A stretch of 64,000 nt of DNA from Companilactobacillus kedongensis (GTDB taxonomy: Bacteria; Bacillota; Bacilli; Lactobacillales; Lactobacillaceae): assembly GCF_003946625.1 (NCBI RefSeq), contig NZ_RHOR01000003.1, forward strand, positions 62,001-126,000. Direction: 5' to 3'. Of this stretch, positions 2,460 to 59,964 are shown piece after piece. Every line of letters starts with the position of its first letter. Positions within the stretch are counted from its first letter, which is position 1. Below the pieces are notes generated by a model, which ran no database searches, had not been told where the DNA came from, and was given only the letters and a program-made list of their open reading frames with translations. A program made the position numbers and the translations under genes.

Positions 2460-2632
2460 GCCGCCTACGAGCACGAGGATGTTGGCCTGCTGTGCGACCG
2501 ACACGAACCAAGGTTTCGTGTCTCGATTTCAAGCTCTGCTGTCGCAAATCTCGAAATCGTCGGTTCCGTAAGCACAGCTACGCTGTACTAACGCAACTTT
2601 CACTGCTGGCCAACATCCTCGTGCTCTCCGGC
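2460..2632 (+). repeat. Family A 3'-end element, copy A1 (forward)
   Basis: A multi-stem palindromic element 10 bases after the stop of the OYE gene. The closing stem is a perfect 19-bp pairing of 2469-2487 with 2608-2626, plus GCCG (2460) with CGGC (2632). Inside are three hairpins: CACGAA/TTCGTG around the loop CCAAGG, the core CGATTTCAAG/CTCGAAATCG, and AGCACAGC/GCTGTACT. It has the same layout as 13 other copies in the window. It is oriented like the upstream gene and lies between its stop codon and the terminator at 2658. Confidence 0.9.
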
Positions 2633-2657
2633 TAGTTTTAAATAGTATATGAAAAAA

Positions 2658-2704
2658 GATCCCTAAATATACAAGATTTATGAAAATCTGTATATCTAGG
2701 GATC
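2658..2704. terminator. Bidirectional Rho-independent terminator
   Basis: A long hairpin (GATCCCTA.ATATACA.GATTT paired with AAATCTGTATATCTAGGGATC) flanked by an A-run on the left and TTTATTT on the right. It can end transcription of both the OYE gene and asnA, and separates elements A1 and A2. Confidence 0.8.
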
Positions 2705-2737
2705 TTTATTTCCTATCATAAATTATATAGGACATAG

Positions 2738-2800
2738 AGCTGGAGATTTTGAGTAATGGAACCAGTTGCGCAGGTGGAATTACTCAAAATCGGAAGCGGC
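2738..2800 (-). repeat. Family A element, reduced copy A2 (reverse)
   Basis: Only the outer part of the element is present. GATTTTGAGTAAT pairs with ATTACTCAAAATC, and a short central GTTGCGCA replaces the three inner hairpins. It keeps the GCCGC and AGCT ends of full copies. It begins 13 bases after the asnA stop codon, in asnA orientation. It looks like a deletion derivative or minimal form of subtype 2. Confidence 0.75.
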
Positions 2801-2813
2801 AATAAACGACAGA

Positions 2814-3821
2814 TTACAAAATTTGAATCTTGTTTTCATAACATTTGTCGATCATGTCTTGTGGCCAAACACTAGCTTGAACTTCACCAACGTGAGCCTT
2901 GCCAAGTAATAGCATACATAGACGTGATTGTCCGATACCACCACCGATAGTGTATGGCAATTCACCGTTTTCTAGCATTTGGTGATATGGAAGTTTAAGA
3001 CGATCTTCAGCATCAGCTTCTTTTAATTGAGCCTTCATTGATTCTTCGCTGACACGGATACCCATACTTGAGATTTCTAAAGCCATTTGTAGAGGTTCAT
3101 ACCAGAAGAGGATATCACCATTTAATTTCCAGTCATCATAGTCAGGGGCACGACCGTCATGACGTTTACCTGATTTCATTTTGCCACCGATTTGCATTAA
3201 GAAGACACAGCCTAATTCTTTAGTAATGGCATTTTCACGTTCTTTAGGTGTCATGTCTGGGAATCTGTCTTCAAGTTCTTGGGTTGTAACAAAGTGGATT
3301 TCATCAGGTAAGTGATAAACAGCTTCTGGGAATTTGTACCAAACTTCGTGTTCCATATGTTTGATAACTTTGAAAATTGTCTTAACAGTAGCTTTAAGAG
3401 TTTCAGTTGTACGTTCTTCTTTAGAAATAACTTTCTCCCAATCCCATTGGTCAACATAGATGGAATGGATGTTATCAAGATCTTCGTCTTTTCTGATAGC
3501 GTTCATATTTGTATAGAGACCTGTATGCATGCCGAAGCCGTAACGTTTCAAAGCAACACGTTTCCACTTAGCTAGTGAGTGAACGATTTCGATTGTTTGG
3601 TCAGGAATATCTTTCATAGTGAATGAAACTGGAGTTTCAACACCGTTCAAGTTATCGTTTAGACCTGTTGATTTTTCAACAAACATAGGAGCTGATAAAC
3701 GTGATAGATTGAGTTCCTTACCGAATTCGTCTTGAAAAGTTTCACGAATGTAACGAATTGCTTTTTGTGTTTCGATGATTGATAGTTTTGGATCGTATGA
3801 TTCAGGAATTGTTAAATGCAT
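2814..3821 (-). CDS. asnA: Aspartate--ammonia ligase (asparagine synthetase A)
   Basis: A 335-residue enzyme making asparagine from aspartate, ammonia and ATP in the cytosol. The whole length matches the AsnA family (about 330 aa, class II aminoacyl-tRNA synthetase-like fold). Characteristic segments are [15 protein letters not shown] near residue 45, [12 protein letters not shown] near 87, and the C-terminal [23 protein letters not shown] with the motif-3-like arginine. The start has AAGGAG 8 bases upstream. A T-box leader (3871-4152) precedes it, so expression should rise when tRNA-Asn is uncharged. A glutamine-dependent AsnB is encoded at 13432, so the cell has two asparagine routes. A reduced family A element and a bidirectional terminator follow the gene. 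Confidence 0.97.
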
Positions 3822-3870
3822 AGGTAGGTCTCCTTCATTTTTTTAAATTTAGTCGATAAAAGACAGGCAA

Positions 3871-4152
3871 CAAAAAAAGTCTTTCATCCCTAATAAAAGG
3901 GACGAAAGACTTTCGCGGTACCACCCAAGTTGCTTATCAAAAATAAGCCACCTCAATAAGAGTACAAAGAAACTATACTCTGCCGATGGTAACGTATCGG
4001 TTACGTCTAAACTTACTTTGGAAAATCCATTTCGGCCAGAAACATAAGAAAGGGTTATTCAGAAAATTCAACGCTGCTTGGGTTCTCACCAATCCCAATT
4101 CACTGTCAGGTTGAGTAAACTTACTCTTCTTTCTTGTCGTCTTTATCTTGTG
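3871..4152 (-). promoter_or_regulatory. T-box riboswitch, predicted tRNA-Asn specific
   Basis: The leader of asnA. On the minus strand the conserved T-box sequence GGGTGGTACCGCG (3914-3926) is followed by the terminator hairpin AAGTCTTTCGTCCC...GGGATGAAAGACTT with a T-run ending at about 3872. Upstream is a stem I region with GGTGAGA at its apex and the stretch GAATAACC, where AAC (4056-4054), an asparagine codon, is the likely specifier. A promoter fits at TTTACA (4186-4181) and TAGTAT (4164-4159), 16 bp apart. The specifier position is read by eye. Confidence 0.9.
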
Positions 4153-24199: not shown

Positions 24200-24245
24200 T
24201 AGTTTGGTATTTAGTACATTTAGTAGTGTAAATTCAAGAGAAAAA

Positions 24246-24293
24246 AATACTTCCTAGATATACGTTTTTAAACAGTATACTCTAAGAAGTATT
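24246..24293. terminator. Bidirectional terminator hairpin
   Basis: AATACTTC.TAGA / TCTA.GAAGTATT long hairpin flanked by A7 and TTTTC, between elements A4 and A5. Confidence 0.75.
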
Positions 24294-24313
24294 TTCAATT
24301 TTATATATATTTA

Positions 24314-24468
24314 GCCGGAGAGAATGAGTAATGGAACCAGTTGTGCAAGTGGAGTTTTACTCCACCGACGATTCTGAGATTTGCGCAAGCAAAGCTCAAA
24401 ATCGAGACACAAGACCCAGACTTGCGTTGGTCGCATAACAGGTGGAATTACTCATTTTCGTAGGCGGC
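24314..24468 (-). repeat. Family A element, copy A5 (reverse)
   Basis: Starts 14 bases after the stop of the YraQ-type permease gene, in its orientation. It is subtype 2: outer stem AATGAGTAAT / ATTACTCATT, inner arm AGTGGAGT/ACTCCACC, the core CGATTTTGAG/CTCAGAATCG, and an imperfect variable hairpin ACACAAG/CTTGCGT. Confidence 0.88.
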
Positions 24469-26903: not shown

Positions 26904-27080
26904 TTGCGTCTCCGAGCGTGAGGGAGTTGGTCTGCTGTGCGGCCGACATGAGCCTTGGTCTCATGTCTCAATTTTGAGCTTTGCTGTCGCAAATCTCGAA
27001 ATCGCCTATTCCGTAACGACGGAAAACCGTGTCGTAACGGAATCTTCACTGCTGACTAACTCCCCCAAGCTCTCCGGCTC
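26904..27080 (+). repeat. Family A element, copy A6 (forward)
   Basis: Directly abuts the MalY-type stop codon. The closing stem GAGC.TG.GGGAGTT.GTC pairs imperfectly with GACTAACTCCCCCAAGCTC. Inner hairpins are GACATGAG/CTCATGTC (loop CCTTGG), the core, and ACGACGG/CCGTGTCGT framed by CCGT/ACGG. This is the most degenerate closing stem in the window. Confidence 0.85.
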
Positions 27081-27104
27081 GATTTGTTTTATATATAAAA
27101 TATA

Positions 27105-38843: not shown

Positions 38844-39022
38844 GCCGCCTACGTGCGAGATGGATGGTGGCCTGCTGTGGGATCGCCCTTCAGCCAAGGT
38901 CTGAAGGCTCGATTTTGAGCTTTGCTGCGCAAATCTCGAAATCGTCCATTCTGTAAGAGCAGCACGAATCGCTACTCTAACAGAATTTTCACTGCTGGCC
39001 ACCGTCCATCTCGCTCTCCGGC
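38844..39022 (+). repeat. Family A element, copy A7 (forward)
   Basis: The closing stem GCGAGATGGATGGTGGCC pairs with GGCCACCGTCCATCTCGC (one G-T pair), plus GCCG/CGGC ends. Hairpins are CCTTCAG/CTGAAGG (loop CCAAGG), the core CGATTTTGAG/CTCGAAATCG, and AGAGCAGC/GCTACTCT framed by CTGT/ACAG. One of the best-preserved copies. Confidence 0.92.
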
Positions 39023-39050
39023 TCGTTTGGGTTTTAGTACATAAAGGAAA

Positions 39051-39098
39051 AATCCCTGAGTATACAGATTTATAATCAATTCTGTATATTCAGGGATT
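39051..39098. terminator. Bidirectional terminator hairpin
   Basis: AATCCCTGAGTATACAGA / TCTGTATATTCAGGGATT, flanked by A- and T-rich tracts, in the middle between elements A7 and A8. Confidence 0.88.
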
Positions 39099-39127
39099 CT
39101 TATTTTTTCATAATAATCATGTTATAG

Positions 39128-39282
39128 ATCTGGAGATTTTGAGTAATGGAGTCAGTTGTGAAAGTGGAGTTTTACTCCACTGACGATTCTGAGATTTGCG
39201 TAGCAAAGCTCAAAATCGAGTTTCCAGACCTTGGCTGGAAACGGTTGCACAACAGGCGGAATTACCCAAAATTGGAAGCGGC
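39128..39282 (-). repeat. Family A element, copy A8 (reverse)
   Basis: Subtype 2, 11 bases after the stop of the sugar-isomerase-like gene and in its orientation. Outer stem ATTTTGAGTAAT / ATTACCCAAAAT; inner arm AGTGGAGT/ACTCCACT; core CGATTTTGAG/CTCAGAATCG; variable hairpin GTTTCCAG/CTGGAAAC. Confidence 0.9.
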
Positions 39283-40030: not shown

Positions 40031-40095
40031 TGTAATTCCCTCCAAGTTGCTTGATAAAAAAGTTAATAGACTAACTTTATACCAAGAAAACGTTG

Positions 40096-40774: not shown

Positions 40775-40777
40775 AAA

Positions 40778-41489: not shown

Positions 41490-41492
41490 AAA

Positions 41493-41527
41493 AATAAAGC
41501 TGAGGGAAAATTTCTCTCGGCTTTATT
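41493..41527. terminator. Bidirectional Rho-independent terminator
   Basis: AATAAAGC.GAG / CTC.GGCTTTATT hairpin with A-run before and T8 after, between the small membrane protein gene and the Fur-family gene. Confidence 0.88.
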
Positions 41528-41987: not shown

Positions 41988-42011
41988 AAGCAGTCTTCCT
42001 TTCTAGTTTGG

Positions 42012-42173
42012 AATCATTACAAGTTAATTATAATACCTATCTAATAAAAATATCAATTATTGATTCTTATTGGAATAAAGTTAGGAATCGGGTTTTAAAT
42101 GTTTACTTTCGCTTAAAAATGAATTATTATGAATTCGTTAGCAGATGAGAATCATTCCAACTTAGAAATGATT
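42012..42173. promoter_or_regulatory. PerR-VIT intergenic region with AATCATT motifs
   Basis: An inverted repeat AATCATT (42150-42156) and AATGATT (42167-42173) precedes the VIT genes. AATCATTAC occurs again before perR (42012-42020). These could be Fur/PerR-family operators, but they do not match the classical PerR box well. Confidence 0.35.
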
Positions 42174-42194
42174 ACAAAGTAAGAGGTGAATGGA

Positions 42195-42884
42195 ATGCAA
42201 AAAGCTAAAAAGACTAGAAGTTTAGCTGAAAAGATCAATGTTATGCGTGCCAGTGTTATGGGTGCCAATGATGGGATCATTTCAGTAGCCGGTATCGTTA
42301 TTGGTGTTGCGGGTGCCGGAAGCAATAATTATGCTATTTTTCTAGCTGGTATTGCAGGCATGCTGGCCGGAACTATTTCTATGGCGATGGGTGAATGGGT
42401 TTCTGTTAGTACACAGCGTGACAGTGAGAAACGTGCTATTGAGAAGGAATCAGCGGCCTTAGATGGTAATTATGATGGTGAGTTTGAATTTATTCAAAAT
42501 AAATATCAAGATACGGGGATCTCTGAAGAGCTTGCTTTAAAGGCCACTAAAGAAATGATGAGCGGTGATCCATTAGATGTTGCGGTACGTGAACGTTTTG
42601 GATTTAACCCTAAGGAAGAAACCAGTGCAATCGCAGCTGCCATTGCTTCAATGATCTCATTTCCCACTGGATCAATTCTGCCGTTAGTTTCAATTACCTT
42701 ATTTCCAGCCCAGATGCGTGTCATTGCCACAGTGATCGCAGTTGTTATCGCGCTGGTTATAACTGGATATACAGCAGCATATCTTGGTAATGCCAACAGG
42801 TTAAAAGCAGTCTTTAGAAATGTGGTTTCAGGATTATTAACAATGCTTGTGACATACCTGATCGGTACATTATTTGCACATTAA
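42195..42884 (+). CDS. VIT-family metal transporter, copy 1
   Basis: A 229-residue membrane protein of the VIT1/CCC1 family, which moves Fe2+ or Mn2+ out of the cytosol. Features are RASVMGANDGIISVAGIVIG (about 17-36), MAMGEWVSVSTQRD near 73, the acidic cytoplasmic segment (about 85-145) that binds metal, and a C-terminal helix block. GAGGTG fits ATG 42195 better than GTG 42186. A second VIT gene follows after 13 bases. Confidence 0.92.
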   Translation: MQKAKKTRSLAEKINVMRASVMGANDGIISVAGIVIGVAGAGSNNYAIFLAGIAGMLAGTISMAMGEWVSVSTQRDSEKRAIEKESAALDGNYDGEFEFIQNKYQDTGISEELALKATKEMMSGDPLDVAVRERFGFNPKEETSAIAAAIASMISFPTGSILPLVSITLFPAQMRVIATVIAVVIALVITGYTAAYLGNANRLKAVFRNVVSGLLTMLVTYLIGTLFAH

Positions 42885-42897
42885 AGGAGTGATAAGA

Positions 42898-43602
42898 ATG
42901 ATGAAAGCAGTAAACTTTCCCAAGCAAAAAAAGAGCAAAAAGACAATGGCTGAACGCTCAAACACTTTACGTGCGGGAGTTTTAGGCTCAAATGATGGAA
43001 TACTTACGGTTGTTGGTGTTCTATTCTCAGTTGCGGTCGCGACAACGAATCAATTCACAATTTTTATCGCTGGTCTATCTGACCTTATTGCATGTGCTTT
43101 TTCAATGGCTTCTGGCGAATATGCATCAGTTAGCTCCCAAAAGGATACCGAAAAAGCAGCTATTGAAAAAGAACGTGAACTAATTGAGACGGATTATCAA
43201 TCAGAATTAAGTGTTGTAGCAGATTATTACGTAGATCGTGGTGTTTCTAAGAAAACATCTTTAGAAATTGCTAGTGAATTGATGAAAAAGGATGCCTTAG
43301 GAACAGTTGTAAAAGTTAAGTATGATTTGGACTTAGGACATTATATGAATCCTTGGGATGCGGCCTTTTCTTCACTAGTCGCAGCATCATCAGGTGGTAT
43401 TTTCCCATTGGTAGCAATGACATTCTTACCAGTTTCATTGCAATGGCCGGGGACTATTTTGGCGGTTACTTTGTCGGTTGCTTTAACAGGATTCTTGAGT
43501 GCCAAATTGGGTGATGGACTTGTTAAAACGGCAATTATTAGAAATGTTATTGTAGGTATTATTACTATGATCATTCACTATTCTGTTGGTTTGATGTTGT
43601 AG
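42898..43602 (+). CDS. VIT-family metal transporter, copy 2
   Basis: A 234-residue paralogue of the preceding protein: RAGVLGSNDGILTVVGVLFS near 25, MASGEYASVSSQKD near 76, an acidic cytoplasmic segment, and a C-terminal helix block. AAAGGAG precedes ATG 42898, 13 bases after the first VIT stop, so they form an operon and may work as a hetero-oligomer. Element A9 and a terminator follow. Confidence 0.92.
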   Translation: MMKAVNFPKQKKSKKTMAERSNTLRAGVLGSNDGILTVVGVLFSVAVATTNQFTIFIAGLSDLIACAFSMASGEYASVSSQKDTEKAAIEKERELIETDYQSELSVVADYYVDRGVSKKTSLEIASELMKKDALGTVVKVKYDLDLGHYMNPWDAAFSSLVAASSGGIFPLVAMTFLPVSLQWPGTILAVTLSVALTGFLSAKLGDGLVKTAIIRNVIVGIITMIIHYSVGLML

Positions 43603-43619
43603 TTTTTTCTTTTCTTTTC

Positions 43620-43770
43620 GCCTAAAATTTTGAGTAATTCCACCTATTGTGCGACCGTCTTCGGCCAAGGTCCGAAGACTCGATTTTGAGCTTTGCTACG
43701 CAAATCTCAGAATCGTCAGTGGAGTAAAACTCCACTTTCACAACTGTTTCCATTACTCAAAATTTTAGGC
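43620..43770 (+). repeat. Family A element, copy A9 (forward)
   Basis: Subtype 2, 17 bases after the second VIT stop. The outer stem GCCTAAAATTTTGAGTAAT pairs perfectly (19 bp) with ATTACTCAAAATTTTAGGC. Inner hairpins are GTCTTCGG/CCGAAGAC, the core CGATTTTGAG/CTCAGAATCG, and GTGGAGT/ACTCCAC. Terminator at 43811. Confidence 0.92.
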
Positions 43771-43810
43771 TGGTTGGGATTTTAACTATCAATAGTAATA
43801 TAAAATATAG

Positions 43811-43850
43811 GAGTAACTTCTCACTTCATATTTGAAATGAGAAGTTGCTC
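43811..43850 (+). terminator. Rho-independent terminator of the VIT operon
   Basis: GAGTAACTTCTCA / TGAGAAGTTGCTC hairpin followed by TTTTTAGTATTT. Confidence 0.85.
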
Positions 43851-43938
43851 TTTTTAGTATTTATGAGTTTATTAGTCGGAAGGGATGGAAAATATTTATG
43901 ATAAAATTAAGCTATCATATAAGAATTCGGGTATTTAA

Positions 43939-44772
43939 ATGAATAAAGAAAAATTGCGCAGATTTAATGACAGTGAAAACTTTTTTGCATGTCCCGTCTG
44001 TGATGAAAGTCTTAGCTTGGAAAATAACAGCTTAGTTTGTTCAAATGGTCATAATTTTGATATTGCTAAACAGGGGTATGTTAATTTCTTACTCAATATG
44101 AAGCAACAGAAAAATTATGATAAGGCCAACTTTGAAAATCGTGGTTTGATTTTGAAAGATGGTTTGTACGATCATATTTTAAATAAGATAGTAGAGATCG
44201 TTAAAGATTTGCCTATTGAGACGATTCTTGATGCTGGTTGCGGTGAAGGATATTATTCACGTGAGATCCAAGAACAACTCAATAAAACTCTTTTAGCCTT
44301 TGATATTTCAAAGGATTCTGTACAATTAGCTGCTAGAAACGATACTAATAATGCTGTTAAGTGGTTTGTTGGTGATTTAGCCAATTTACCGATGCAAGAT
44401 AACAGTGTCGATAGCATTCTGGATATTTTCTCGCCAGCCAATTATCATGAGTTTCATCGTATCTTGAAGAGGGATGGTTATTTGATCAAAGTGATCCCAG
44501 GTGAAAAACATCTGACTGAATTGAGACAGCAGGCTAGTGAATATTTGAGAAGTGAAAGCTACTCTAATCAGAAAGTTCTCAGTTATTTTGAAGAACATTT
44601 CCAAACTGTAGATGAGATAAAAGCTACTAAAACGTATCCTGTTTCAGAAGAGGAAAGAAAAGCTTTTATCAATATGACACCTTTATTGTTTAATGTTGAT
44701 AAGGATAAAGTCGATTGGACCAGTGTTAATGAAATAACTGTTGATTCTACAATTTTGATCGGTAAAGCATAG
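43939..44772 (+). CDS. rlmA: 23S rRNA (guanine-N1)-methyltransferase, RlmA family
   Basis: A 277-residue SAM-dependent enzyme methylating a guanine in helix 35 of 23S rRNA (G745 or G748). The N-terminal zinc knuckle is CPVC (17-20) with CSNGH (33-37), followed by FDIAKQGYVNFLL. The SAM site is LDAGCGEGYY near 96-105, and DIFSPANYHEF near 160 is typical. TlrB-type homologues confer macrolide tolerance, but this form is widespread. It is a single-gene unit, with a weak ribosome site (GGGTATTTAA). Confidence 0.92.
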   Translation: MNKEKLRRFNDSENFFACPVCDESLSLENNSLVCSNGHNFDIAKQGYVNFLLNMKQQKNYDKANFENRGLILKDGLYDHILNKIVEIVKDLPIETILDAGCGEGYYSREIQEQLNKTLLAFDISKDSVQLAARNDTNNAVKWFVGDLANLPMQDNSVDSILDIFSPANYHEFHRILKRDGYLIKVIPGEKHLTELRQQASEYLRSESYSNQKVLSYFEEHFQTVDEIKATKTYPVSEEERKAFINMTPLLFNVDKDKVDWTSVNEITVDSTILIGKA

Positions 44773-44831
44773 GTTACTGAATACTTTATGCGTAACTATA
44801 GAAATAAAAAATGACCTGACAATTTGTCAGA

Positions 44832-45101
44832 TCATTTAGTCTTAAGTAGTAGATCAAGTGAGTTTTGTAAATTAGATAGTTGTTTTTCGTTAACACAATC
44901 AACATTGCTGCGGATATTTTGAGCAATAACTTGTTTCATAGCTTTGTCGACTCCGGATTTAACAGCTGACAGTTGCACCAAAACTTCATTGCAGGGACGA
45001 CCGTCATCCATCATACGTAAAATACCGTCCAATTGACCACGGGATCTTTTGATTTGGCTAGTTATCTTTTTGCTTACGAGTTCTTCAGATTCTTGAGACA
45101 T
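44832..45101 (-). CDS. CsoR/FrmR-family regulator with unusual ligand residues
   Basis: An 89-residue all-helical DNA-binding protein of the DUF156 family (ITSQIKRSRGQLDGILRMMDDG). In copper sensors the ligands are Cys, His and Cys (C-x24-H-x3-C). Here C37 is kept, but the other two positions are N62 and N66, and an extra C69 follows. A Cu(I) role is therefore unlikely; a two-cysteine thiol or persulfide sensor, or another ligand, is possible. AAGGAGG precedes the ATG. It is divergent from thioredoxin, with two CsoR-type operators in between. Confidence 0.88.
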   Translation of the reverse strand: MSQESEELVSKKITSQIKRSRGQLDGILRMMDDGRPCNEVLVQLSAVKSGVDKAMKQVIAQNIRSNVDCVNEKQLSNLQNSLDLLLKTK

Positions 45102-45137
45102 ATCAGCCTCCTTAAATAATTAATATAGTTGATATTA

Positions 45138-45230
45138 TACCCACACGGGTACCGTACATCAAATTATATGCTGATATTTCTTTTAAACAGTGATAAACAA
45201 ATTAATTGCCATAACTTACCCTAGGGGGTA
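45138..45230. promoter_or_regulatory. Two CsoR/CstR-type operators
   Basis: TACCCACACGGGTA (45138-45151) and TACCCTAGGGGGTA (45217-45230) are G/C-tract palindromes like known CsoR and CstR sites. One lies near each start of the divergent csoR-like and thioredoxin genes, so the regulator probably controls both. Confidence 0.75.
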
Positions 45231-45274
45231 TATTATTAATTGAAATAAGATATAGGTAAAGGGGAGACTTCTAA

Positions 45275-45598
45275 ATGAGCAATATTAAAGAGATTTCTGA
45301 CAAGACTTTTAATGACGAAACAAGCACCGGTTTAGTAATTACCGATTTTAATGCTGACTGGTGTCCTCCATGTAAGATGATGAATCCAATCTTGGAAAAG
45401 TTATCTGAAAATGATCAATTGGGCGAGAAAATCAAGTTCACATCAATGAACGTTGATAAAAATCCACAAACACCTAATAACTTTGGTATTCAGGGAATCC
45501 CAACTTTCATCGTTAAAAAAGATGGTGAAGTTGTTGGTAGAATGGTTGGATATCAACCAGAATCTAAGTTCCGCAAGGCCTTAGAACAATATATGTAA
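45275..45598 (+). CDS. trxA: Thioredoxin with CPPC active site
   Basis: A 107-residue thioredoxin fold. DFNADWCPPCKMM (about 25-37) carries CPPC in place of the usual CGPC, which should shift the redox potential. The cis-Pro motif GIPTFIV (about 77-83) is present. The genomic position opposite a CsoR-family regulator with two operators suggests induction by a reactive species rather than a housekeeping role. An arsC-type gene, which needs thioredoxin, follows 1.2 kb away. GGGGAG precedes the ATG. Confidence 0.93.
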   Translation: MSNIKEISDKTFNDETSTGLVITDFNADWCPPCKMMNPILEKLSENDQLGEKIKFTSMNVDKNPQTPNNFGIQGIPTFIVKKDGEVVGRMVGYQPESKFRKALEQYM

Positions 45599-45601
45599 GC
45601 A

Positions 45602-45629
45602 AAAACGATACTCTTGTGAGTATCGTTTT
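45602..45629. terminator. Bidirectional Rho-independent terminator
   Basis: AAAACGATACT / AGTATCGTTTT hairpin with A- and T-runs between thioredoxin and the LCP gene. Confidence 0.9.
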
Positions 45630-45630
45630 T

Positions 45631-46653
45631 TTAATATGTATTATTTGTATAGTAAGTTTTATCTAAGCCGTGAGTGTCGTAATCGGTATTATCATCATCT
45701 TCAAAGAAAGCTTTATTTTGTTTGTTTAATTTAGTTTCGGTATTAGATACGGTGTCATCTGGGAGTCCTAAATTCTTGCGCAACTTGTCGGAAGCCTTTT
45801 GCAATGTATTAGTAGATAAAACTTGATATGAGCTACCGTTTATCCAAGCAGATTTACCCTGTAGTTGATGTGATTTGATTGTTTTACCACTGTTATGATA
45901 TTTCATCGGAAATTCTTCCAATTGTTTATCAGTTAAATCAGTACTGATATCTGGTCCTAGTTCTTTGATCAATTTTGGTAAGTGGATCAAGTATTTAGGT
46001 TGAGCCATTTTTTTGGCAACGGCCTTTAGAATCTGTTGTTGTCGAATTTGTCGTCCATAATCTCCTCTTGGATCTTCATAACGCATACGAACATAGGTCA
46101 AAGCCTTGGTACCATTAAGATGGTGGGTACCTTTAGGAACAGTTACGCCATCAAAGCTAACTTTCATGTCAGATTTGATCGTCACACCTCCAACAAAGTT
46201 GACGGTTTTTTTGAGTGCGGCCATATTTACTGCCACACTGTAATCAACGGGAACATTTAGCAATTCACCGACAGTATTTTTAGCCATCTTTGACTTACCG
46301 ATATTATAAGCGGCGTTGATTTTTTGAACATTTTTAGTTTTATCTCCAACCATTTCTGCTACGGAATCTCTAGGAATGGAGTAGATAACGGTTTTCTTAG
46401 TTTTAGGGTTCAAGGTAATTAACATCATGGTATCTGAATTTCCTCGATCAACACGGCCATCGGCACCAGTATCTGCACCTAAAAGTAAAATGGAGACAGG
46501 CTTATCTTGATCAACCTTTTGCGAGACACTATTTTTACTAGTATCGACTGACTTCAAAGCTTCTTTATTTTGATGAATGTATATACCTATCATTACTGCT
46601 AGAATAGCAATGATAGCGACAATAGAAATCATAATTCGTTTAAAAATTTTCAT
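45631..46653 (-). CDS. LytR-CpsA-Psr (LCP) family protein
   Basis: A 340-residue enzyme attaching teichoic acids or capsule polymers to peptidoglycan at the outer membrane face. One N-terminal helix (about 8-27) anchors it. The catalytic domain has VSILLLGADTGADGRVDRGNSDTMM near 53-77 with pyrophosphate-binding arginines, and DSVAEM, HHLNGTKALTYVRMRYEDPRGDYGRQIRQQQIL near 180-210. A Thr/Asn/Asp-rich tail (300-340) follows. GAGGTAATTT precedes the ATG. A single-gene unit. Confidence 0.94.
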   Translation of the reverse strand: MKIFKRIMISIVAIIAILAVMIGIYIHQNKEALKSVDTSKNSVSQKVDQDKPVSILLLGADTGADGRVDRGNSDTMMLITLNPKTKKTVIYSIPRDSVAEMVGDKTKNVQKINAAYNIGKSKMAKNTVGELLNVPVDYSVAVNMAALKKTVNFVGGVTIKSDMKVSFDGVTVPKGTHHLNGTKALTYVRMRYEDPRGDYGRQIRQQQILKAVAKKMAQPKYLIHLPKLIKELGPDISTDLTDKQLEEFPMKYHNSGKTIKSHQLQGKSAWINGSSYQVLSTNTLQKASDKLRKNLGLPDDTVSNTETKLNKQNKAFFEDDDNTDYDTHGLDKTYYTNNTY

Positions 46654-46791
46654 AAATTACCTCAGTATTTAATCTTAGTATTACATTATAATATAATTAC
46701 TAAACAATACAAGGTAACTTAGTGATTATACTATCTGTTGTCGCCTGTTCTATGGTAAATTTAAAAATAACATAAAAAGGGGTTGAGAAAT

Positions 46792-47190
46792 ATGAAAAGG
46801 GTCTATTTTATTTGTACTGGTAATTCATGTCGTTCACAAATGGCAGAGGGATTCGGTGAAAAATATTTAACAGATTGGCAAGTAAAGAGTGCGGGTGTAG
46901 AAACACATGGTCTAAATCCAAAGGCTGTGCAAGTTATGGCTGAAAAGAATATCGATATTTCGGATCACACATCAGATTTGATCGACTTAGACTACTTTAA
47001 TAGTTGTGACTTGATAGTCACTCTTTGTGGGGATGCCAGAGATCGTTGCCCAGTTATTCCTCAAAGTGTGAAACATCTTCACTGGGGATTACCTGACCCC
47101 GCTCAAGCCAAAGGTTCAGAAGAAGAAATATTGAACGTCTTTAGAGAGGTTCGTGATGAGATTGAAATTAAGGTTAAGGAGTTAATCTAA
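46792..47190 (+). CDS. arsC: Arsenate reductase, thioredoxin-coupled (low-MW phosphatase fold)
   Basis: A 132-residue protein. The P-loop [13 protein letters not shown] (about 8-20) with CX5R, and the cysteine pair in [15 protein letters not shown] near 75-90 are the three catalytic cysteines of thioredoxin-type ArsC. It reduces arsenate to arsenite. A TTG at 46783 is in frame, but AAGGGG fits ATG 46792. The isochorismatase gene starts directly after its stop (TAAATG). An As(III) exporter is not adjacent; the SLC13/ArsB-like permease at 56-57 kb and the YraQ-like permease at 24.5 kb are distant. Confidence 0.9.
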
Positions 47191-47679
47191 ATGAGTAAGA
47201 TGGCGCAAGTTTTGCTGGTTATTGATATGCAAAATGACCTGAATGGTTGTTACCATTTTGATGATTTGTTGAGTGATATTAATGATCGAATTGATGATTA
47301 CCGTCAAAATGATTTACCAATAATTTTTATTCAGCATAATGATAGTGATTTGATAAAAGGTAGTGAAGAATGGGATTTTGCTAGAGGTCTTGATAAGAAA
47401 GATGATGACTTAGTAGTAGAAAAGCCACATGCTAATTCTTTTTATCATACGGAACTCAATGATCTGCTACGAGAAAATAGTTTAAAAACGATTGAAATTT
47501 GCGGAGCTCAGACTGAGTATTGTTGCGATACAACAATCAAGATGGCCCATGGATTGGGCTATAAAATTCTTATGCAGCCAGATATGACAACGACTAAGGA
47601 TAATGATTATTTGAACGCTGAAGATACGATCGCATTTTTTGAAGATATTTGGAATAAACGATTCGTTTCATTTATTTGA
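47191..47679 (+). CDS. Isochorismatase-family cysteine hydrolase
   Basis: A 162-residue protein with the catalytic triad of the family: Asp in LVIDMQNDL near 11, Lys in VEKPHANSF near 76, and Cys in CGAQTEYCCDTT near 110. Such enzymes hydrolyse amides (nicotinamide, ureido acids) or related substrates. The substrate is not predictable. AAGGAG inside the end of arsC is its ribosome site, and the genes abut, so they are co-expressed. Confidence 0.88.
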   Translation: MSKMAQVLLVIDMQNDLNGCYHFDDLLSDINDRIDDYRQNDLPIIFIQHNDSDLIKGSEEWDFARGLDKKDDDLVVEKPHANSFYHTELNDLLRENSLKTIEICGAQTEYCCDTTIKMAHGLGYKILMQPDMTTTKDNDYLNAEDTIAFFEDIWNKRFVSFI

Positions 47680-47753
47680 GATAGGCGTTTATAGCAGTCG
47701 AAAAGGTCTACAATGATACTAAATCAGAGAACCATTAATGAGGAGGAGACATT

Positions 47754-49097
47754 TTGGTTTCAAGAGATAGTTTCATTGAAAATAATAAATCTGAGTTTGA
47801 AAGTTTGTTTAAAAAGCTCATCGGACTCAAAGGTGTTAGTGCCACAGGCGAAGGTATCAACGAAACAATTACATTGTTACAGGAAAAACTAAAGGATTTG
47901 GGAGCTCATGTAGAAGTAATTCAAACTGCGGGATCACCTACCATATTGGCCGAAATAGATGGTCAAAGTGATCGCACAGTATTGTTTTATGGGCATTATG
48001 ACGTTATGACGCCAGGAATTAATGCTGATTGGGATACAGATCCTTTTACTTTGACCAAAAAAAATCATCGTTTTTACGGTCGAGGAGCTGGTGACAATAA
48101 AGGACAATTGTTAGCACAAATTTTAGGCTTATATGTTTATAAACAAGTTAACGGTAGCTTTCCGTTCAATATTAAGTTTTTGATCGAAGGCGAGGAAGAA
48201 CAAGGTAGCAAGAATCTACCTTTCACCGTCAAAGAACTGGCTGATAATAAATTGAAAGATGTTGATTTAGCCATTGTAGTAGATGGCTCTTTCAATCAAT
48301 CTGGAGAGCATGTTTTACGATTAGGTAATCGTGGTGCGTTAGGATTTCAAATTACGGCCAAAACAGGGACTCAAGATAATCATTCTGGAAACCTGGGGAA
48401 CATCATGAAGAATCCCGTGCTGGTATTGATGGAATTACTCCAAAAAATCTATGATTTTGAAAATGATAAAGTTTTGATTCCTAATTTTTATGATGGTGTT
48501 GAAGATCCTAGTCAAACAGAGATCGATTGGATGAAACAATTACCATATGACAGAGAGTCGATATCTAAACAGACTGGTGTGAAGGATCTTCCTGAAACCG
48601 GTTTGGAATATTATCAAAAATTGATGTTTAGACCAACGTTTAATATTTCAGGAATTAAGGCAGGATACACAGCCAAAGGGATGAAATCGATCATTCCTCA
48701 TACTGCCATTATGAAAGTTGAAACACGATTGGTCGGGAAACAAGATATTCAAGAGATTCAAATTGGTATCAATAACTTTTTGCAAGATGAAATAAATAAC
48801 GGCGATATCAAGGTTCACTACTTGGTTCAAGTGCCCCCATGCAAGACGGCTTCTGATGACAAGAATATTAAGCCGTTGGTTGACGCCATTAAAGAAGCAA
48901 CAGGCTCAGGTTTGATTGAGCCCACTATGCCGGGAACGGTTCCTAATTATGTGTGGTCAGATATTTTGAAAGTACCTGTGTTTACGATTCCATATGCTAA
49001 CTTCGATCAACGTAACCATGCACCTAACGAAAATATTACTGAAAAAGCTTTTTATGATGGAATTAAAATTTCTTACGAATTGTTGAAAAAATTATAG
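47754..49097 (+). CDS. M20-family metallopeptidase (dipeptidase/deacylase-like)
   Basis: A 447-residue cocatalytic zinc enzyme. The metal ligands lie in LFYGHYDVMTPG (about 77-88), GRGAGDNKGQL near 110 and EGEEEQGSKN near 145 (catalytic Glu). The lid domain is inserted at about 180-330. The size and motifs fit dipeptidases such as DapE/ArgE/CPG2 relatives. It hydrolyses short peptides or acyl-amino acids. The start is TTG 47754 with AGGAGGAG upstream. Element A10 follows 13 bases after its stop. Confidence 0.92.
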   Translation: MVSRDSFIENNKSEFESLFKKLIGLKGVSATGEGINETITLLQEKLKDLGAHVEVIQTAGSPTILAEIDGQSDRTVLFYGHYDVMTPGINADWDTDPFTLTKKNHRFYGRGAGDNKGQLLAQILGLYVYKQVNGSFPFNIKFLIEGEEEQGSKNLPFTVKELADNKLKDVDLAIVVDGSFNQSGEHVLRLGNRGALGFQITAKTGTQDNHSGNLGNIMKNPVLVLMELLQKIYDFENDKVLIPNFYDGVEDPSQTEIDWMKQLPYDRESISKQTGVKDLPETGLEYYQKLMFRPTFNISGIKAGYTAKGMKSIIPHTAIMKVETRLVGKQDIQEIQIGINNFLQDEINNGDIKVHYLVQVPPCKTASDDKNIKPLVDAIKEATGSGLIEPTMPGTVPNYVWSDILKVPVFTIPYANFDQRNHAPNENITEKAFYDGIKISYELLKKL

Positions 49098-49110
49098 GGG
49101 AGCGTTCACT

Positions 49111-49284
49111 GCCGCCTACGATCGAGAGAATGTGTGCCTGCGGTGCGACCGACATCAGCCAAGGTCTGATGTCTCGCTTTGAAGCTTTTCTTGCGCAAAT
49201 CTTCAAAGTCGTCGGTTGTGTACGAACGATGAACCTTGTTCTACGCAACTTTCACTGCTGGCGCACATTCTCTCGCTCTTCGGC
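49111..49284 (+). repeat. Family A element, copy A10 (forward) with divergent core stem
   Basis: Closing stem CGAGAGAATGTGTGCC / GGCGCACATTCTCTCG. The variable hairpin is GACATCAG/CTGATGTC (loop CCAAGG). The core stem is CTTTGAAG/CTTCAAAG, where other copies have ATTTTGAG/CTCGAAAT; three base pairs are changed on both sides and stay paired. The third arm is GTGTA.GAAC/GTTCTACGC. Confidence 0.92.
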
Positions 49285-49320
49285 TCGATTCATTTCCGTA
49301 AATAAAAGTGAAACAAAAAT

Positions 49321-49367
49321 AGCAGTTCGACATTATTAGTGATTTTTCACTAATTAGTCGAACTGCT
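49321..49367. terminator. Bidirectional Rho-independent terminator
   Basis: AGCAGTTCGAC / GTCGAACTGCT hairpin extended by TTAGTGA/TCACTAA, flanked by A5 and TATTTTAATTT. Confidence 0.88.
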
Positions 49368-49393
49368 ATTTTAATTTCAAAAACTATAACTTA

Positions 49394-49567
49394 GCCGGAG
49401 GTTGTGATGATTTATCCAGCAGCTAAGGTGGCGTTAGGGCGGTGAACTTTCCGCTCTTACACCACGGACGTATTTTGAGATTTGCGTAGCAAAGCTCAAA
49501 ATCGAGGTTCAAGACCTTGGCTTGAACCGTTCCAGCTGCAGGATGAATCATCACAACCGGAGGCGGC
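49394..49567 (-). repeat. Family A element, copy A11 (reverse)
   Basis: Outer stem GGTTGTGATGATT / AATCATCACAACC with CCGG/CCGG-type ends. Hairpins in transcript sense are GGTTCAAG/CTTGAACC (loop CCAAGG), the core, and AGAGCGG/CCGCCCT. It begins 7 bases after the stop of the LOG-family gene, in its orientation. Confidence 0.9.
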
Positions 49568-49573
49568 AACAGA

Positions 49574-50140
49574 TTACTTATTATAAGTCCGTATCTTAGG
49601 TGGCACATAGCTTTCCATAAAACTAAGAATGTCATCTAAGGAATCTGAGAAAAGTAATTTTTCTCTATCTTCAGAACTTAGAAAGCCCTTATTTGTCATT
49701 TGATCAAACATATTTTTTAGTGGATCGTAATAATCATTTACGTTAAAGAATGCACTGGGATTTTCATTATCACCAAGGCGTGCCCAAGAGAAGGCCTCAA
49801 TGATTTCTTCTAGTGTTCCTGGTCCACCGGGGAGAGCGATGCAACCGTCAGAAAGATCTAGCATTTTTTGTTTTCTAGCTGACATATTTGGAACAATTTG
49901 TAGTTCACAATCGTCAAAAGCAGTTCCGCGGTCAAATAATTCTTGAGTGATAACTCCTTGAACATTTCCACCTTCTGAACGAACTTCGGTGGCCAACATT
50001 CCCATCAAGCCAACTCGGCCACCTCCATAAACTAGTTCTAAGTTATTAGCAACTAGCCAGTCAGCTAACTCCAAAGTTGCATCTTGATAGATTTTTTCAT
50101 TTCCACTTACTGCACCACAATAAACTGCAATTCGTTTCAC
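49574..50140 (-). CDS. LOG-family (TIGR00730) nucleotide phosphoribohydrolase
   Basis: A 188-residue Rossmann protein of the lysine decarboxylase-like/LOG family, which removes the base from nucleoside 5'-monophosphates. The signature PGGPGTLEEIIE (about 95-106) and the GGGRVGLMG segment near 42 are intact. The start is GTG 50140, placed by AAAGGAG 8 bases upstream; a frame to 50185 is rejected. The cellular role in bacteria is not settled (nucleotide salvage or stress). Confidence 0.9.
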   Translation of the reverse strand: MKRIAVYCGAVSGNEKIYQDATLELADWLVANNLELVYGGGRVGLMGMLATEVRSEGGNVQGVITQELFDRGTAFDDCELQIVPNMSARKQKMLDLSDGCIALPGGPGTLEEIIEAFSWARLGDNENPSAFFNVNDYYDPLKNMFDQMTNKGFLSSEDREKLLFSDSLDDILSFMESYVPPKIRTYNK

Positions 50141-52815: not shown

Positions 52816-52975
52816 AGCGTGTCAATTGGCTGGTTAGACCTTGAGCATTACCCAGGTTAAAGATAATGGCGATTTATGCCATTGTCTTTAACCGTAGTAA
52901 GCGCAGAGGTTTGCCAATTGTAAACGCGTTTAGTAAGCGCAGAAAGTTGCCTTGTGCAGCTCGTTTAATAAGAGC
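52812..52975 (+). repeat. Family B 3'-end element, single copy
   Basis: It starts at the pepD stop codon (TTTAGAGCGTG). It shares with the array at 30688 the words GAGCATTACC.AGG, CGTAGTAAGCGCAGA and GTTGCCTTG.G.AGCTCGTTT, in the same order. The central hairpin GTTAAAGA.AATGGC/GCCATTGTCTTTAAC differs in sequence but stays paired. A GTAAGCGCAGA segment is duplicated within it. Confidence 0.82.
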
Positions 52976-55574: not shown

Positions 55575-55587
55575 TGTTTGTGTTTCC

Positions 55588-55749
55588 GGTATCGAAGGAT
55601 TCGACCTGTGGTAGGACCGTCTTCAGCCAAGGTCTGAAGACTCGATTTTGAACTTTGCACAGTACGCAAATTTCAAAATACGTCCATTCTGTAAGAACGA
55701 CTTCGTCGTCCTAACAGAATTATCACCACTGGTCGCATCCTTCGATACC
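55588..55749 (+). repeat. Family A element, copy A12 (forward)
   Basis: The closing stem GGTATCGAAGGATTCGACC pairs with GGTCGCATCCTTCGATACC (one mismatch). Hairpins are GTCTTCAG/CTGAAGAC (loop CCAAGG), a core ATTTTGAA/TTCAAAAT (G-C changed to A-T against other copies), and ACGAC/GTCGT framed by CTGT/ACAG. Confidence 0.9.
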
Positions 55750-55776
55750 TCTTTGTTTATACGTATACAAATTAAT

Positions 55777-55817
55777 ATCTCCACAGTAATCGGATTTTAT
55801 CTGAATGCTGTGGAGAT
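55777..55817. terminator. Bidirectional Rho-independent terminator
   Basis: ATCTCCACAG / CTGTGGAGAT hairpin with internal ATC.GA pairs, followed by T7 and preceded by an A/T-rich run. Confidence 0.85.
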
Positions 55818-55848
55818 TTTTTTATTTTAAAATATAAAATGATATCTA

Positions 55849-56020
55849 GCCAAAGGATGAGAGTAATGGAACCAGTTGTGCAAGTGGAGTAGAACGGTGT
55901 AACCGTTCGTACTCCACCGACGATTCTGAGATTTGCGTAAGCAAAGCTCAAAATCGAGCCGAGAGACCGAGGCTCTCGGCGTTCGCATAACAGGTGGAAT
56001 TACTCCCATCCTTTAGCGGC
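55849..56020 (-). repeat. Family A element, copy A13 (reverse)
   Basis: Subtype 2. Outer stem AAAGGATG.GAGTAAT / ATTACTC.CATCCTTT. An extended arm GGAGTA.AACGGT/ACCGTT.GTACTCC replaces the short AGTGGAGT arm of sister copies. Variable hairpin GCCGAGAG/CTCTCGGC. It lies beyond the terminator of the anion permease gene. Confidence 0.9.
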
Positions 56021-57779: not shown

Positions 57780-57787
57780 AATGAATA

Positions 57788-57819
57788 AACCACGTGTTTG
57801 CGTATGCAGATGCGTGGTT
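57788..57819 (+). terminator. Probable Rho-independent terminator
   Basis: AACCACG / CGTGGTT hairpin with a long loop that can form inner pairs, followed by TTTTAGTAGTATTT. Weaker than the other terminators here. Confidence 0.6.
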
Positions 57820-57872
57820 TTTAGTAGTATTTAGGTAGTATGATGATTTCAAAATTATTTAAGGGGAGCAAT

Positions 57873-58358
57873 ATGGATAAAATTGAGAAATTACCCAAAG
57901 ATATAAAAACAATTTGGCGCATAAATGTATTTATAGATTTTCTTCTTTTTTTAATTGTTTTATCGGCATTAGTTATCATTGCAGTTTTTCTTCCTGAAGA
58001 GGGGCAGCACCTTGTTGAAATAGGTCAGATGATTGTAGGTATTGTGGCAATCGTCGTGTTGGCTGGAGAACTTATATTGATACCTTATCGCTGGAATTTT
58101 TGGACGTATTATATTGATGAACGACAAGTTGAACTACATAAAGGATTCTTTTTTAGAAAACAAATAATTATTCCGATTGCTAGGGTCCAGAATGTGACCT
58201 TGAAGCAAGGACCGATTTTACGGATCAAGGATCTACAAAAGGTGATCGTAGTGACTGCCGCCGGTAAAAGCGAGATCGAAGGTATTAAAGCATCTCAAGC
58301 TGAAACATTAAAGGAACTACTGATGAAGCTGGCTCAGGAGGCAAAAAATGATGTCTAA
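57873..58358 (+). CDS. YdbS-like membrane protein with bacterial PH domain
   Basis: A 161-residue protein with two helices (about 18-40 and 52-72), then a bPH2 domain (about 78-155) with YYIDERQVELHKGFFFRKQIIIPIARVQNVTLKQGP. This matches YdbS of B. subtilis, whose ydbS-ydbT pair gives resistance to some bacteriocins and antimicrobials. AAGGGGAG fits ATG 57873. It overlaps the following ydbT-like gene by 11 bases, so the two are coupled. Confidence 0.88.
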   Translation: MDKIEKLPKDIKTIWRINVFIDFLLFLIVLSALVIIAVFLPEEGQHLVEIGQMIVGIVAIVVLAGELILIPYRWNFWTYYIDERQVELHKGFFFRKQIIIPIARVQNVTLKQGPILRIKDLQKVIVVTAAGKSEIEGIKASQAETLKELLMKLAQEAKNDV

Positions 58359-59784
58359 AGCACATAGATTGCATCCAGCGGCAATTATGTTTTACCTATA
58401 TAAAGAGCTTAGATCAATCATTTTACCGGCATTTTTTATGTTGATTGCTTTATTGAATAGTTCAGTAATGATAATGATATTAGTGATAACACTGTTAATA
58501 TTAGTAGTCATCACCAAGTGTTTATTAAGGTATTTTACTTTCAGTTATCAGTTGTTGGACCACGAGATTTTGGTCAAAAGTGGTATTTTTGTTAAAAAAG
58601 TTAATCATGTTCCGTACGATCGGATTCAAAATATTACTTCTAATCAATGGTTCTTTCTAAAACCGTTTGGTTTAGAGGAACTGGAAATAGAAACTGCGGG
58701 GCATTCTGAAGGTCCAGAGGTCAGTTTGGCAGCCGTTTCTGTGAAACTAAAGGACGAACTAAATAAGTATCGATCGGAAGTTGATACGGCAGATAAATCT
58801 AAAAATGTTTCACGGGAAACTTTTTCGGGGGAATCGTATTCGATCACTTGGAGAGAGTTATTAAAATTTTCGCTAACTTCACCAGCATTCTTGTCAGGTC
58901 TTTTGGCAATTTTGGCGATTTATGGAAAAGTTCAAAACGGTATCAGTAAGAAGTTTTATGCATTAGCCGCGAATGAGATGCAGCATTTGGGAGTTATTCT
59001 GATCGTAGTTGGATTATTTCTTGTAATGTTGATTTTCTATATTGTTTCAGTGCTGATATTGATTGCTAAGTACTATCACTTCAATCTGGTTAAAGTTAAT
59101 AATAAATTGCAGATGCAATATGGGTTATTTAAAACAAAGAAAACATCCATTGCTACTAGTCGTGTTCAAGCAGTAGTTGTAAAACAAGCATTACTTCGTA
59201 GGTTTTTAAAAATTGCGACAGTCAAGTTAGTGATCATTTCCAATTCTAAAAAAGAAGATACCGAAAAAGATATTATTATCATGCCCGTGATCGAAACGGC
59301 ACAATTGGAAGAATTTCTAAATAGATTTTTCCCTGACATTGCCGTGGACAAATTAAAAATTAAAGATCCGTTACCCAAAACTTATTACTATGATTTGCGT
59401 AATGCACTTATCTTCGCAGTTATAGGGGATGTTATTTTCGGAATCCTATTTTATGCAATCGTTTGGTTAGTACTAAGTTTTGTTTTATTATCACTAATAT
59501 TCTGTATGGTTCCTGCTTATTTAAGAGCTAGACGCTCGAATCTTTCTATTATAGATAAGAATTATTTATATTTAACCAATAATCATTTGTTTACTAAAAA
59601 CAGCTATTTTATTCCTAAAAGTAGTATTCAATTAGTTGAAAGGCGGCAAAGTATTTGGTTAGAGAAAAATTTATTTGCACATTTACGGATTAATTGTCGT
59701 TCTGGAGTTGGAGAACGGGTGATTATGGTTAAGTATTTATCTGCGGATTGGGTTGATGAGGTTGTTAGATGGTATAAGAGTTAA
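58348..59784 (+). CDS. YdbT-like membrane protein with multiple PH domains
   Basis: A 478-residue membrane protein with paired helices followed by bPH2 domains three times: residues about 60-130 (VKKVNHVPYDRIQNITSNQWF), 245-320 (TKKTSIATSRVQAVVVKQALLRRF), and 400-475 (TKNSYFIPKSSIQLVERRQSIW). The arrangement is that of YdbT, partner of YdbS. Probably an envelope stress or antimicrobial-tolerance complex. CAGGAGG precedes the ATG. Element A14 follows 4 bases after its stop. Confidence 0.88.
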   Translation: MMSKAHRLHPAAIMFYLYKELRSIILPAFFMLIALLNSSVMIMILVITLLILVVITKCLLRYFTFSYQLLDHEILVKSGIFVKKVNHVPYDRIQNITSNQWFFLKPFGLEELEIETAGHSEGPEVSLAAVSVKLKDELNKYRSEVDTADKSKNVSRETFSGESYSITWRELLKFSLTSPAFLSGLLAILAIYGKVQNGISKKFYALAANEMQHLGVILIVVGLFLVMLIFYIVSVLILIAKYYHFNLVKVNNKLQMQYGLFKTKKTSIATSRVQAVVVKQALLRRFLKIATVKLVIISNSKKEDTEKDIIIMPVIETAQLEEFLNRFFPDIAVDKLKIKDPLPKTYYYDLRNALIFAVIGDVIFGILFYAIVWLVLSFVLLSLIFCMVPAYLRARRSNLSIIDKNYLYLTNNHLFTKNSYFIPKSSIQLVERRQSIWLEKNLFAHLRINCRSGVGERVIMVKYLSADWVDEVVRWYKS

Positions 59785-59788
59785 ATAT

Positions 59789-59964
59789 GCCGCCGAAGGT
59801 TTTGAGTAATTCCACCTGTTGCGGGGACCGCCTTTAGTCAAGGTCTAAAGGCTCGATTTTGAGCTTTGCTGGCGCAAATCTCAGAATCGTCCATGGTGTA
59901 AGGATGGAAAATCACCATCCAACATCATTTTCGCAACTGGTTCCATTACTCAAAATCTTCAGCT
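59789..59964 (+). repeat. Family A element, copy A14 (forward)
   Basis: Subtype 2, starting 4 bases after the ydbT-like stop. Outer stem GAAG.TTTTGAGTAAT / ATTACTCAAAA.CTTC. Hairpins are GCCTTTAG/CTAAAGGC (loop TCAAGG), the core CGATTTTGAG/CTCAGAATCG, and GGATGG/CCATCC. Confidence 0.9.

What the first reader, a model, noticed from the sequence alone, without database searches (positions are those of the whole stretch)
2460..59964. Fourteen copies of one multi-stem element placed just after stop codons
The family A element occurs about every 4.6 kb. Thirteen of 14 copies lie within roughly 45 bases of a stop codon, in the same orientation as that gene; none lies in a divergent promoter region apart from the orphan A4. 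All share a closing stem, a variable hairpin with loop CC(A/T)(A/T/C)GG, a conserved core hairpin (CGATTTTGAG / CTC.GAAATCG type) and a third arm. I recognise no described family. It may be a structured 3'-UTR RNA, a REP-like mobile element without its own transposase, or a transcription or topology barrier.
Basis: seen in the sequence. Interest (0 to 1): 0.9.

Follow-up and report, generated by a model that had tools for sequence, protein, structure and literature searches.

The report
Paired folding repeats bracketing gene terminators
A lactic acid bacterium carries well over a hundred copies of a foldable 175-base DNA element, mostly as facing pairs on either side of the stop signals at gene ends; relatives occur in other genera, in one of them inside a small mobile element, and the most variable folds look maintained in the DNA itself rather than in the messenger RNA.

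Summary
Confirmed: 14 copies (13 full, 156-182 nt; one 65-nt remnant), 13 of them 2-42 nt after a stop codon in the gene's sense. The own genome (a Companilactobacillus) holds at least 149; 28 of 36 genomes of the genus and 46 of 301 of the family match; Rfam searches found no family for it. 55 of 61 base pairs show two-sided changes across 30 copies of five genera.

Copies face each other in pairs (57 of 58 close neighbours), mostly around a terminator-like hairpin (41 of 57). In another genus the pair sits inside a MITE with inverted ends and 6-9 bp duplications. Sites differ between species.

The two variable stems pair equally well whether or not they lie in a gene's sense, and tolerate A.C as readily as G.T, unlike terminators of the same genome. 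I favour a DNA-level, non-autonomous mobile hairpin that settles beside terminators over a selected 3'-UTR RNA. Closest kinds: YPAL/RU-2 and REPIN/BIME. How it moves in the own genome is unknown (no target duplication, inverted ends or transposase found).

The parts
2460..2635 (+). full module; left mate of pair 1
   Evidence: 189 bits; 10 nt after stop of 1262-2449
2636..2735 (.). spacer of pair 1 with terminator-like hairpin
   Evidence: sequence; hairpin
2736..2800 (-). closing-stem-only remnant; right mate of pair 1; after the asnA-like gene 2814-3821 (-)
   Evidence: 47.7 bits
19627..19801 (+). full module, no mate found by the model
24203..24310 (.). spacer of pair 2 with terminator-like hairpin
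24311..24468 (-). module, right mate of pair 2; 14 nt after stop of 24483-25541 (-)
26906..27081 (+). full module, no mate found by the model; 2 nt after stop
38844..39025 (+). full module, left mate of pair 3
39026..39125 (.). spacer of pair 3 with terminator-like hairpin
39126..39282 (-). module, right mate of pair 3
43618..43773 (+). module with short third arm, no mate found by the model; hairpin about 35 nt downstream
49111..49287 (+). full module, left mate of pair 4
49288..49390 (.). spacer of pair 4 with terminator-like hairpin
49391..49567 (-). full module, right mate of pair 4
55585..55755 (+). full module, left mate of pair 5
55756..55845 (.). spacer of pair 5 with terminator-like hairpin
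55846..56020 (-). full module, right mate of pair 5
59789..59966 (+). full module, no mate found by the model; hairpin about 30 nt downstream

Best explanation
Each copy is one module of a non-autonomous, DNA-level mobile hairpin element of Lactobacillaceae. A module is a closing stem that carries three hairpins (four-way junction) and could extrude from one strand as a cruciform or single-stranded hairpin. Modules settle beside intrinsic terminators at gene ends, on either side of the terminator hairpin and mostly with their 3' ends toward it, which yields facing pairs; sense copies start a median of 12 nt after stop codons. The folded DNA is what is kept: stems stay complementary by hairpin-templated repair, gene conversion between copies, or recognition of the hairpin by a protein that moves it. 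Shown: family, covarying structure, facing pairs, enrichment of terminator-like hairpins between mates, site differences between species, a MITE context with duplications in one other genus, no G.U preference in the two variable stems. Inferred: that a trans-acting transposase or recombinase moves modules in Companilactobacillus, that the terminator hairpin is the target, and that effects on transcripts (blocking exonucleases or read-through) are a by-product that makes the site tolerable.
For: At least 149 copies in the own genome; 0 to at least 76 (that call's scoring cap) per species of the genus. Paralogs up to 94.1% identical have unrelated flanks, their likeness ending at the module ends, and their pair mates are 56-72% alike in seven of eight comparisons (85% in one), so single modules spread. 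At purR the pair is present in the own genome; 7 of 8 relatives have no module and a plain terminator, the eighth one module in the other orientation. At asnA, of 14 genomes searched, only the own (a pair) and G046 (one module) have matches. 57 of 58 close neighbours face inward; 41 of 57 spacers hold a hairpin with T-run against 1-7 of 57 in five simple shuffles. In G333 the facing pair lies in a MITE of about 510-550 bp with inverted ends (132 ends with up to 1 mismatch, 0 in the reversed control) and 6-9 bp direct repeats (13 of 23 candidates, two of them fetched twice). Variable stems: G.T 45 against A.C 69; terminators of the same genome 37 against 17; P 0.0005. Paired cells 86.7% in sense copies, 87.2% in the others.
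Against: No target duplication and no inverted ends in the own genome. No transposase found: the Y1 family does not track copy number, and ORFs of 18 stretches around MITE ends in G333 showed none by eye (not scanned against Pfam). The more conserved stems HP2 and HP3 do show G.T excess (80:33 and 39:4), so an RNA role for them is not excluded. Several species differences look like deletions, not gains. The terminator link is not universal: 16 of 57 spacers scored none; by the stricter T-count only 33 of 94 paired and 15 of 55 unpaired copies have a T- or A-run beside the best hairpin; 14 of 55 unpaired copies have a hairpin on their 5' side; in G008 the module at purR points the other way.
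Confidence: 0.6

Rival explanations
1. Selected structured 3'-UTR RNA: the module folds in the mRNA between stop codon and terminator, protecting the 3' end from exonucleases or recruiting a protein.
For: 111 of 149 copies are in the sense of the upstream gene, 92 of them within 49 nt of its stop (5 of these overlap its end); terminator-like hairpins follow; folding is strong and covarying; G.T excess in HP2 and HP3.
Against: 35 of 149 copies are not in the sense of the upstream gene, and such copies are equally well paired; no G.U preference in HP1 and the distal stem or over all 61 pairs of A3 (36 against 50, P 0.16); 8 of 36 genomes of the genus have no match; sites differ between close species.
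Confidence: 0.2
2. Terminator-associated repeats kept by the host as two-sided transcription insulators or topology sites (gyrase or nucleoid-protein sites), spread by ordinary gene conversion rather than transposition.
For: Facing pairs around terminator-like hairpins; highest use in convergent gaps (7 of 16); replacement of most of one hairpin stem between orthologous copies.
Against: No match in 8 of 36 genomes of the genus; pair at purR with plain terminators in 7 of 8 relatives.
Confidence: 0.12
3. Module pairs are decayed MITEs: the ancestral unit is the composite seen in G333, and Companilactobacillus copies are old remnants that lost their inverted ends.
For: Facing pairs in both; MITE with duplications in G333; remnants and a fusion seen in G036.
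Against: Sense copies begin a median of 12 nt after stop codons, leaving little room for lost ends; near-identical paralogs share no flanks and mostly have unlike mates; the inverted end is not enriched in own stretches (11 against 11 in the control).
Confidence: 0.08

Closest known systems
YPAL / RU-2 repeats of Yersinia
   Same: About 168 bp, internal inverted repeats, insertion across or beside dyad symmetry, empty and filled sites between species (passages of PMC2229807).
   Different: Here facing pairs, three inner hairpins, no target duplication in the own genome; YPAL duplicates 3-26 bp. No sequence comparison was made.
REPIN / BIME (REP doublets)
   Different: Modules are about 175 nt against 20-40 bp for REPs (abstract of PMC3733652 as listed); copy number does not follow Y1/RAYT genes.
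BOX, RUP and SPRITE repeats of Streptococcus pneumoniae
   Same: Composite boxA/boxB/boxC element with a foldable inner unit, over-representation between convergent genes, terminator-like SPRITE (passages of PMC3049150).
   Different: No facing-pair rule in the passages read. No sequence comparison was made.
Bacterial MITEs
   Same: In G333 the pair lies between inverted ends with 6-9 bp direct repeats.
   Different: Own-genome copies have neither.

Membership tests
MITE | terminal inverted repeats | tested here: not met
   Own genome: 6 of 46 pairs with a 9-bp outer inverted repeat, shuffled mean 5.7; met in G333.
MITE | target site duplication | tested here: not met
   Own genome: no convincing signal for single modules or pairs; in G333 13 of 23 candidates.
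REPIN/BIME | linked to a RAYT (Y1) transposase | tested here: not met
   PF01797 in 18 of 36 genomes; no match in high-copy G002, G005, G008; own genome only a 36-position piece at a contig end.
REPIN/BIME | inverted doublet | tested here: met
   57 inward pairs holding 114 of 163 copies, 1 other close neighbour.
YPAL/RU-2 | about 168 bp, internal inverted repeats | tested here: met
   156-182 nt full copies in the window.
YPAL/RU-2 | target duplications of 3-26 bp | tested here: not met
   No convincing signal in the own genome.
YPAL/RU-2 | insertion at or beside dyad symmetry | tested here: met
   41 of 57 spacers with terminator-like hairpin.
YPAL/RU-2 | sequence homology to YPAL | not tested
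   No YPAL sequence was compared.
Rfam RNA families | score above a family's gathering threshold | tested here: not met
   Whole window: only a T-box. Looser limits on nine relative loci and on window 38600-49700 gave only hits below gathering scores.

The most novel reading that the evidence does not exclude
A new class of DNA-hairpin element that homes to the two flanks of intrinsic terminators: two subtypes of a four-way-junction module pair face to face across the terminator, recognised as folded DNA through the AGCC(AA/TT)GGTCT-capped hairpin, while the stem of that hairpin is rewritten on both strands by a templated process. This would be a mobile element for which terminator hairpins are the target.
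Probability: 0.27. Interest if true: 0.85.

Novelty: new variant of a known kind. Interest (0 to 1): 0.68.

Why it matters
Strongly covarying folds are usually taken as proof of a functional RNA. Here a family seen in at least five genera covaries at 55 of 61 pairs, yet its variable stems lack the G.U bias that terminators of the same genome show, which points to folding at the DNA level. If right, it warns against reading covariation alone as RNA, gives a mobile repeat that marks terminators in lactic acid bacteria, and offers a hypervariable but complementary stem as a natural record of templated hairpin repair.

Tried and rejected
Known RNA family: Rfam gave only a T-box in the window; looser searches of nine relative loci and of window 38600-49700 gave only hits below gathering scores.

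Y1/RAYT transposase as driver: presence does not track copy number.

HP1 or distal stem as a guide for the insertion site: no enrichment in flanks.

Kissing loops between mates (CCAAGG with CCTTGG): loop types were tallied in pairs (15 AA-AA, 9 AA-TT or TT-AA, 1 TT-TT, rest other or unread) and not tested further.

Target duplications of single modules or pairs in the own genome: no convincing signal. The 2-base excess lies inside the module ends; a few 3- and 4-base offsets slightly exceeded 200 shuffles among hundreds of offsets tried.

An autonomous element in the 849-base gap at G000:C22: only broken frames by eye. An autonomous element with the G333 ends: none evident among ORFs of 18 stretches, read by eye.

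Plasmids and phages: no match to one own module, nor in plasmids to the G333 MITE or one module of genus g26.

Two-subtype rule: strong by distal-stem class (37 of 50 pairs, null 24.4, P 0.00015), weaker by other features (23 of 35, 27 of 39, 16 of 19; P 0.06, 0.013, 0.003), and NOT recovered by unsupervised two-way clustering, where mates were more alike than expected (7 of 50 discordant, null 14.3) and average linkage split off one copy only; in G034 6 of 7, P 0.15. One search gave 36 of 43 with the first classifier. So it is a tendency, not a law.

Literature: the listings (titles and starts of abstracts, top 5 to 20 rows each) showed no paper on this family; only passages of PMC3049150, PMC3716772, PMC3116915, PMC2229807 and PMC2817692 were read.
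Full report
Observation. The 14 copies are real. Full copies are 156-182 nt and fold into a closing stem with three hairpins; one (2736-2800, -) keeps only the closing stem. Thirteen lie 2-42 nt after a stop codon in the same sense; the other, 24025-24202, lies on the far side of a terminator and is the mate of 24311-24468. Gaps of 30 bp or more occupied in the window: 7 of 16 convergent, 2 of 14 tandem, 0 of 18 divergent. Folding of one copy is far outside shuffles as RNA and as DNA on both strands.

Family. A covariance model from 13 copies finds 149 matches among 150 scored candidates in the 2.27 Mb own genome (781 first-look candidates, so a lower bound; one match is the reverse reading of another). 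A search of 569,548 bases of own stretches and window adds 15 weaker or shortened copies, picked by me from the table and including the remnant at 2736-2800. Matches per genome range from 0 (8 of 36) to at least 76, the scoring cap of that call; some genomes have only weak ones. In the family 46 of 301 species and 8 of 40 genera, own included, match at E 1e-8 or better. An alignment of 30 copies from five genera (11 rows Companilactobacillus, 19 others) has 61 consensus pairs, 55 with two-sided changes. Weaker relatives with an AGCC..GGTCT-type hairpin cap, in two of them on two arms, occur in two other families of the order (caps read by eye). Rfam gave no family; one own module has no match in plasmid and phage records.

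Placement. Of 149 copies 111 follow a gene in the same sense (median 12 nt, 92 within 49 nt), 35 do not, 3 have no gene in view. The stronger rule is pairing: 47 of 49 neighbours under 700 bp face inward, one of the other two being two readings of one place; with weak copies 57 inward pairs hold 114 of 163 copies, against one other close arrangement (that double reading dropped). Of 47 pairs 23 lie between genes that both point in, 21 have one such gene, 1 has none, 2 lack a gene on one side. Of 57 spacers 55 are 75-224 bases, and 41 of 57 hold a hairpin with T-run on either strand against 1-7 of 57 in five simple shuffles. An earlier, differently cut count was weaker: a hairpin on the 3' side in 77 of 94 paired and 42 of 55 unpaired copies, with a T- or A-run right beside it in 33 and 15. 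Copies in tandem gaps include a far-side mate antisense to both genes, which a 3'-UTR role does not predict. Mates tend to be of two subtypes (37 of 50 by distal stem, P 0.00015), but unsupervised clustering does not show it. In nine pairs that I read off the G333 part of the table, one mate scores 50.7-115.4 bits and the other 24.1-42.4.

Evolution. Nearest paralogs reach 94.1% identity (median 82%, 139 copies). In six groups shown, flanks are unrelated and likeness stops at the module ends. Of 12 paralog pairs at 87% or more, eight have both mates known; those mates are 56-72% alike in seven and 85% in one, so spread is mainly of single modules. No target duplication was found. Against G036, whose asnA product is 99% identical, 33 own copies have both flanks in the stretches fetched; of the 14 chosen for alignment some sites are shared, some empty, and some carry deletion remnants, among them what looks like two half-modules fused into one hairpin. 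At purR the own genome has a pair where 7 of 8 relatives have a plain terminator and no match; the eighth has one module, pointing the other way. At asnA, of 14 genomes searched only the own and G046 have matches. The first hairpin is hypervariable yet complementary: 85 different 7-nt arms in the 136 of 139 copies where it was found; at 80-85% identity of the rest its arm already differs at 3.28 of 7 bases, near the 3.58 of copies under 65%, while the third arm differs at 1.50 against 3.26. Between orthologous copies at C12_34091 five of seven arm bases are replaced, with the partner arm changed to match; of five other orthologous comparisons one arm is unchanged and the rest changed less or less cleanly.

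RNA or DNA. If the sense RNA were selected, G.U should outnumber A.C. In HP1 and the distal stem G.T is 14 and 31, A.C 17 and 52 (copies with poor pairing or no anchor were left out, so that 868 HP1 cells, 124 of 146 copies, remain). Seventy-three terminator-like hairpins of the same stretches give 37 and 17, Fisher P 0.0005. HP2 and HP3 run the other way (80:33 and 39:4), largely T.G, which I take to be subtype-fixed positions; pooled over all four stems G.T is 164 and A.C 106, and this is the best remaining sign of an RNA role. Over all 61 pairs of the five-genus alignment it is 36 against 50 (P 0.16). In the two variable stems, copies in sense within 150 nt of a stop and the other copies are paired alike, 86.7% and 87.2%. 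I conclude that upkeep of the variable stems is at the DNA level, and leave HP2 and HP3 open.

Mobility elsewhere. In G333, of another genus, the facing pair with a spacer of 27-44 nt lies in a MITE with 14-bp inverted ends (132 occurrences with up to 1 mismatch, 0 in the reversed control). Of 23 candidates, long and short forms together (two were fetched twice, so 21 distinct), 13 have direct repeats of 6-9 bp at or within 3 bases of the ends; 9 of 23 match at 6 or more of 7 bases against a shuffled mean of 0.67, maximum 5. The end motif is not enriched in the own stretches (11 against 11). No transposase was found.

Mechanism. Most likely a non-autonomous DNA hairpin element, recognised in folded form, that inserts beside terminator hairpins, where it does least harm. 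Because a terminator hairpin is nearly palindromic, its two sides look alike on the two strands; insertion at a fixed orientation to it gives facing pairs. This step is inferred. In kind it works like YPAL/RU-2 and REPIN/BIME repeats (passages) but meets neither family's full test.

Verdict. A real and large family, undescribed as far as the listings named in Tried and rejected show; a new variant of the known kind of structured interspersed repeat, with an unusual signature of DNA-level structural upkeep.

Noticed in passing
window 3895-4146 (-): T-box leader upstream of the gene at 2814-3821, whose protein looks like aspartate-ammonia ligase (name from my own reading of the sequence, no search).
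   Followed up: partly
window 30710-30951 and 52834-52915: A second repeat kind: two 121-bp tandem copies 97% alike and an inverted relative elsewhere.
   Followed up: no
window 29631-30533 and 35647-36561: Two similar genes of about 300 codons on the same strand, 6 kb apart (DNA 74% alike over 300 nt).
   Followed up: no
G000 contigs C10, C14, C16, C19: Modules lie within about 500 bases of the first base of these contigs, so the repeats probably broke the assembly and the copy count is low.
   Followed up: no
spacers of own pairs: Some spacers resemble each other (45 similar pairs of 1596 at E 0.01), as if their terminator hairpins were repeats themselves.
   Followed up: partly
L225, L226, L227, L237: Short 193-319 bp elements in G333 share the MITE ends but are too short for the module pair.
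   Followed up: partly
L043, L047, L122: Elements in two other families of the order carry one or two hairpins capped by AGCC..GGTCT-like loops (by eye).
   Followed up: partly
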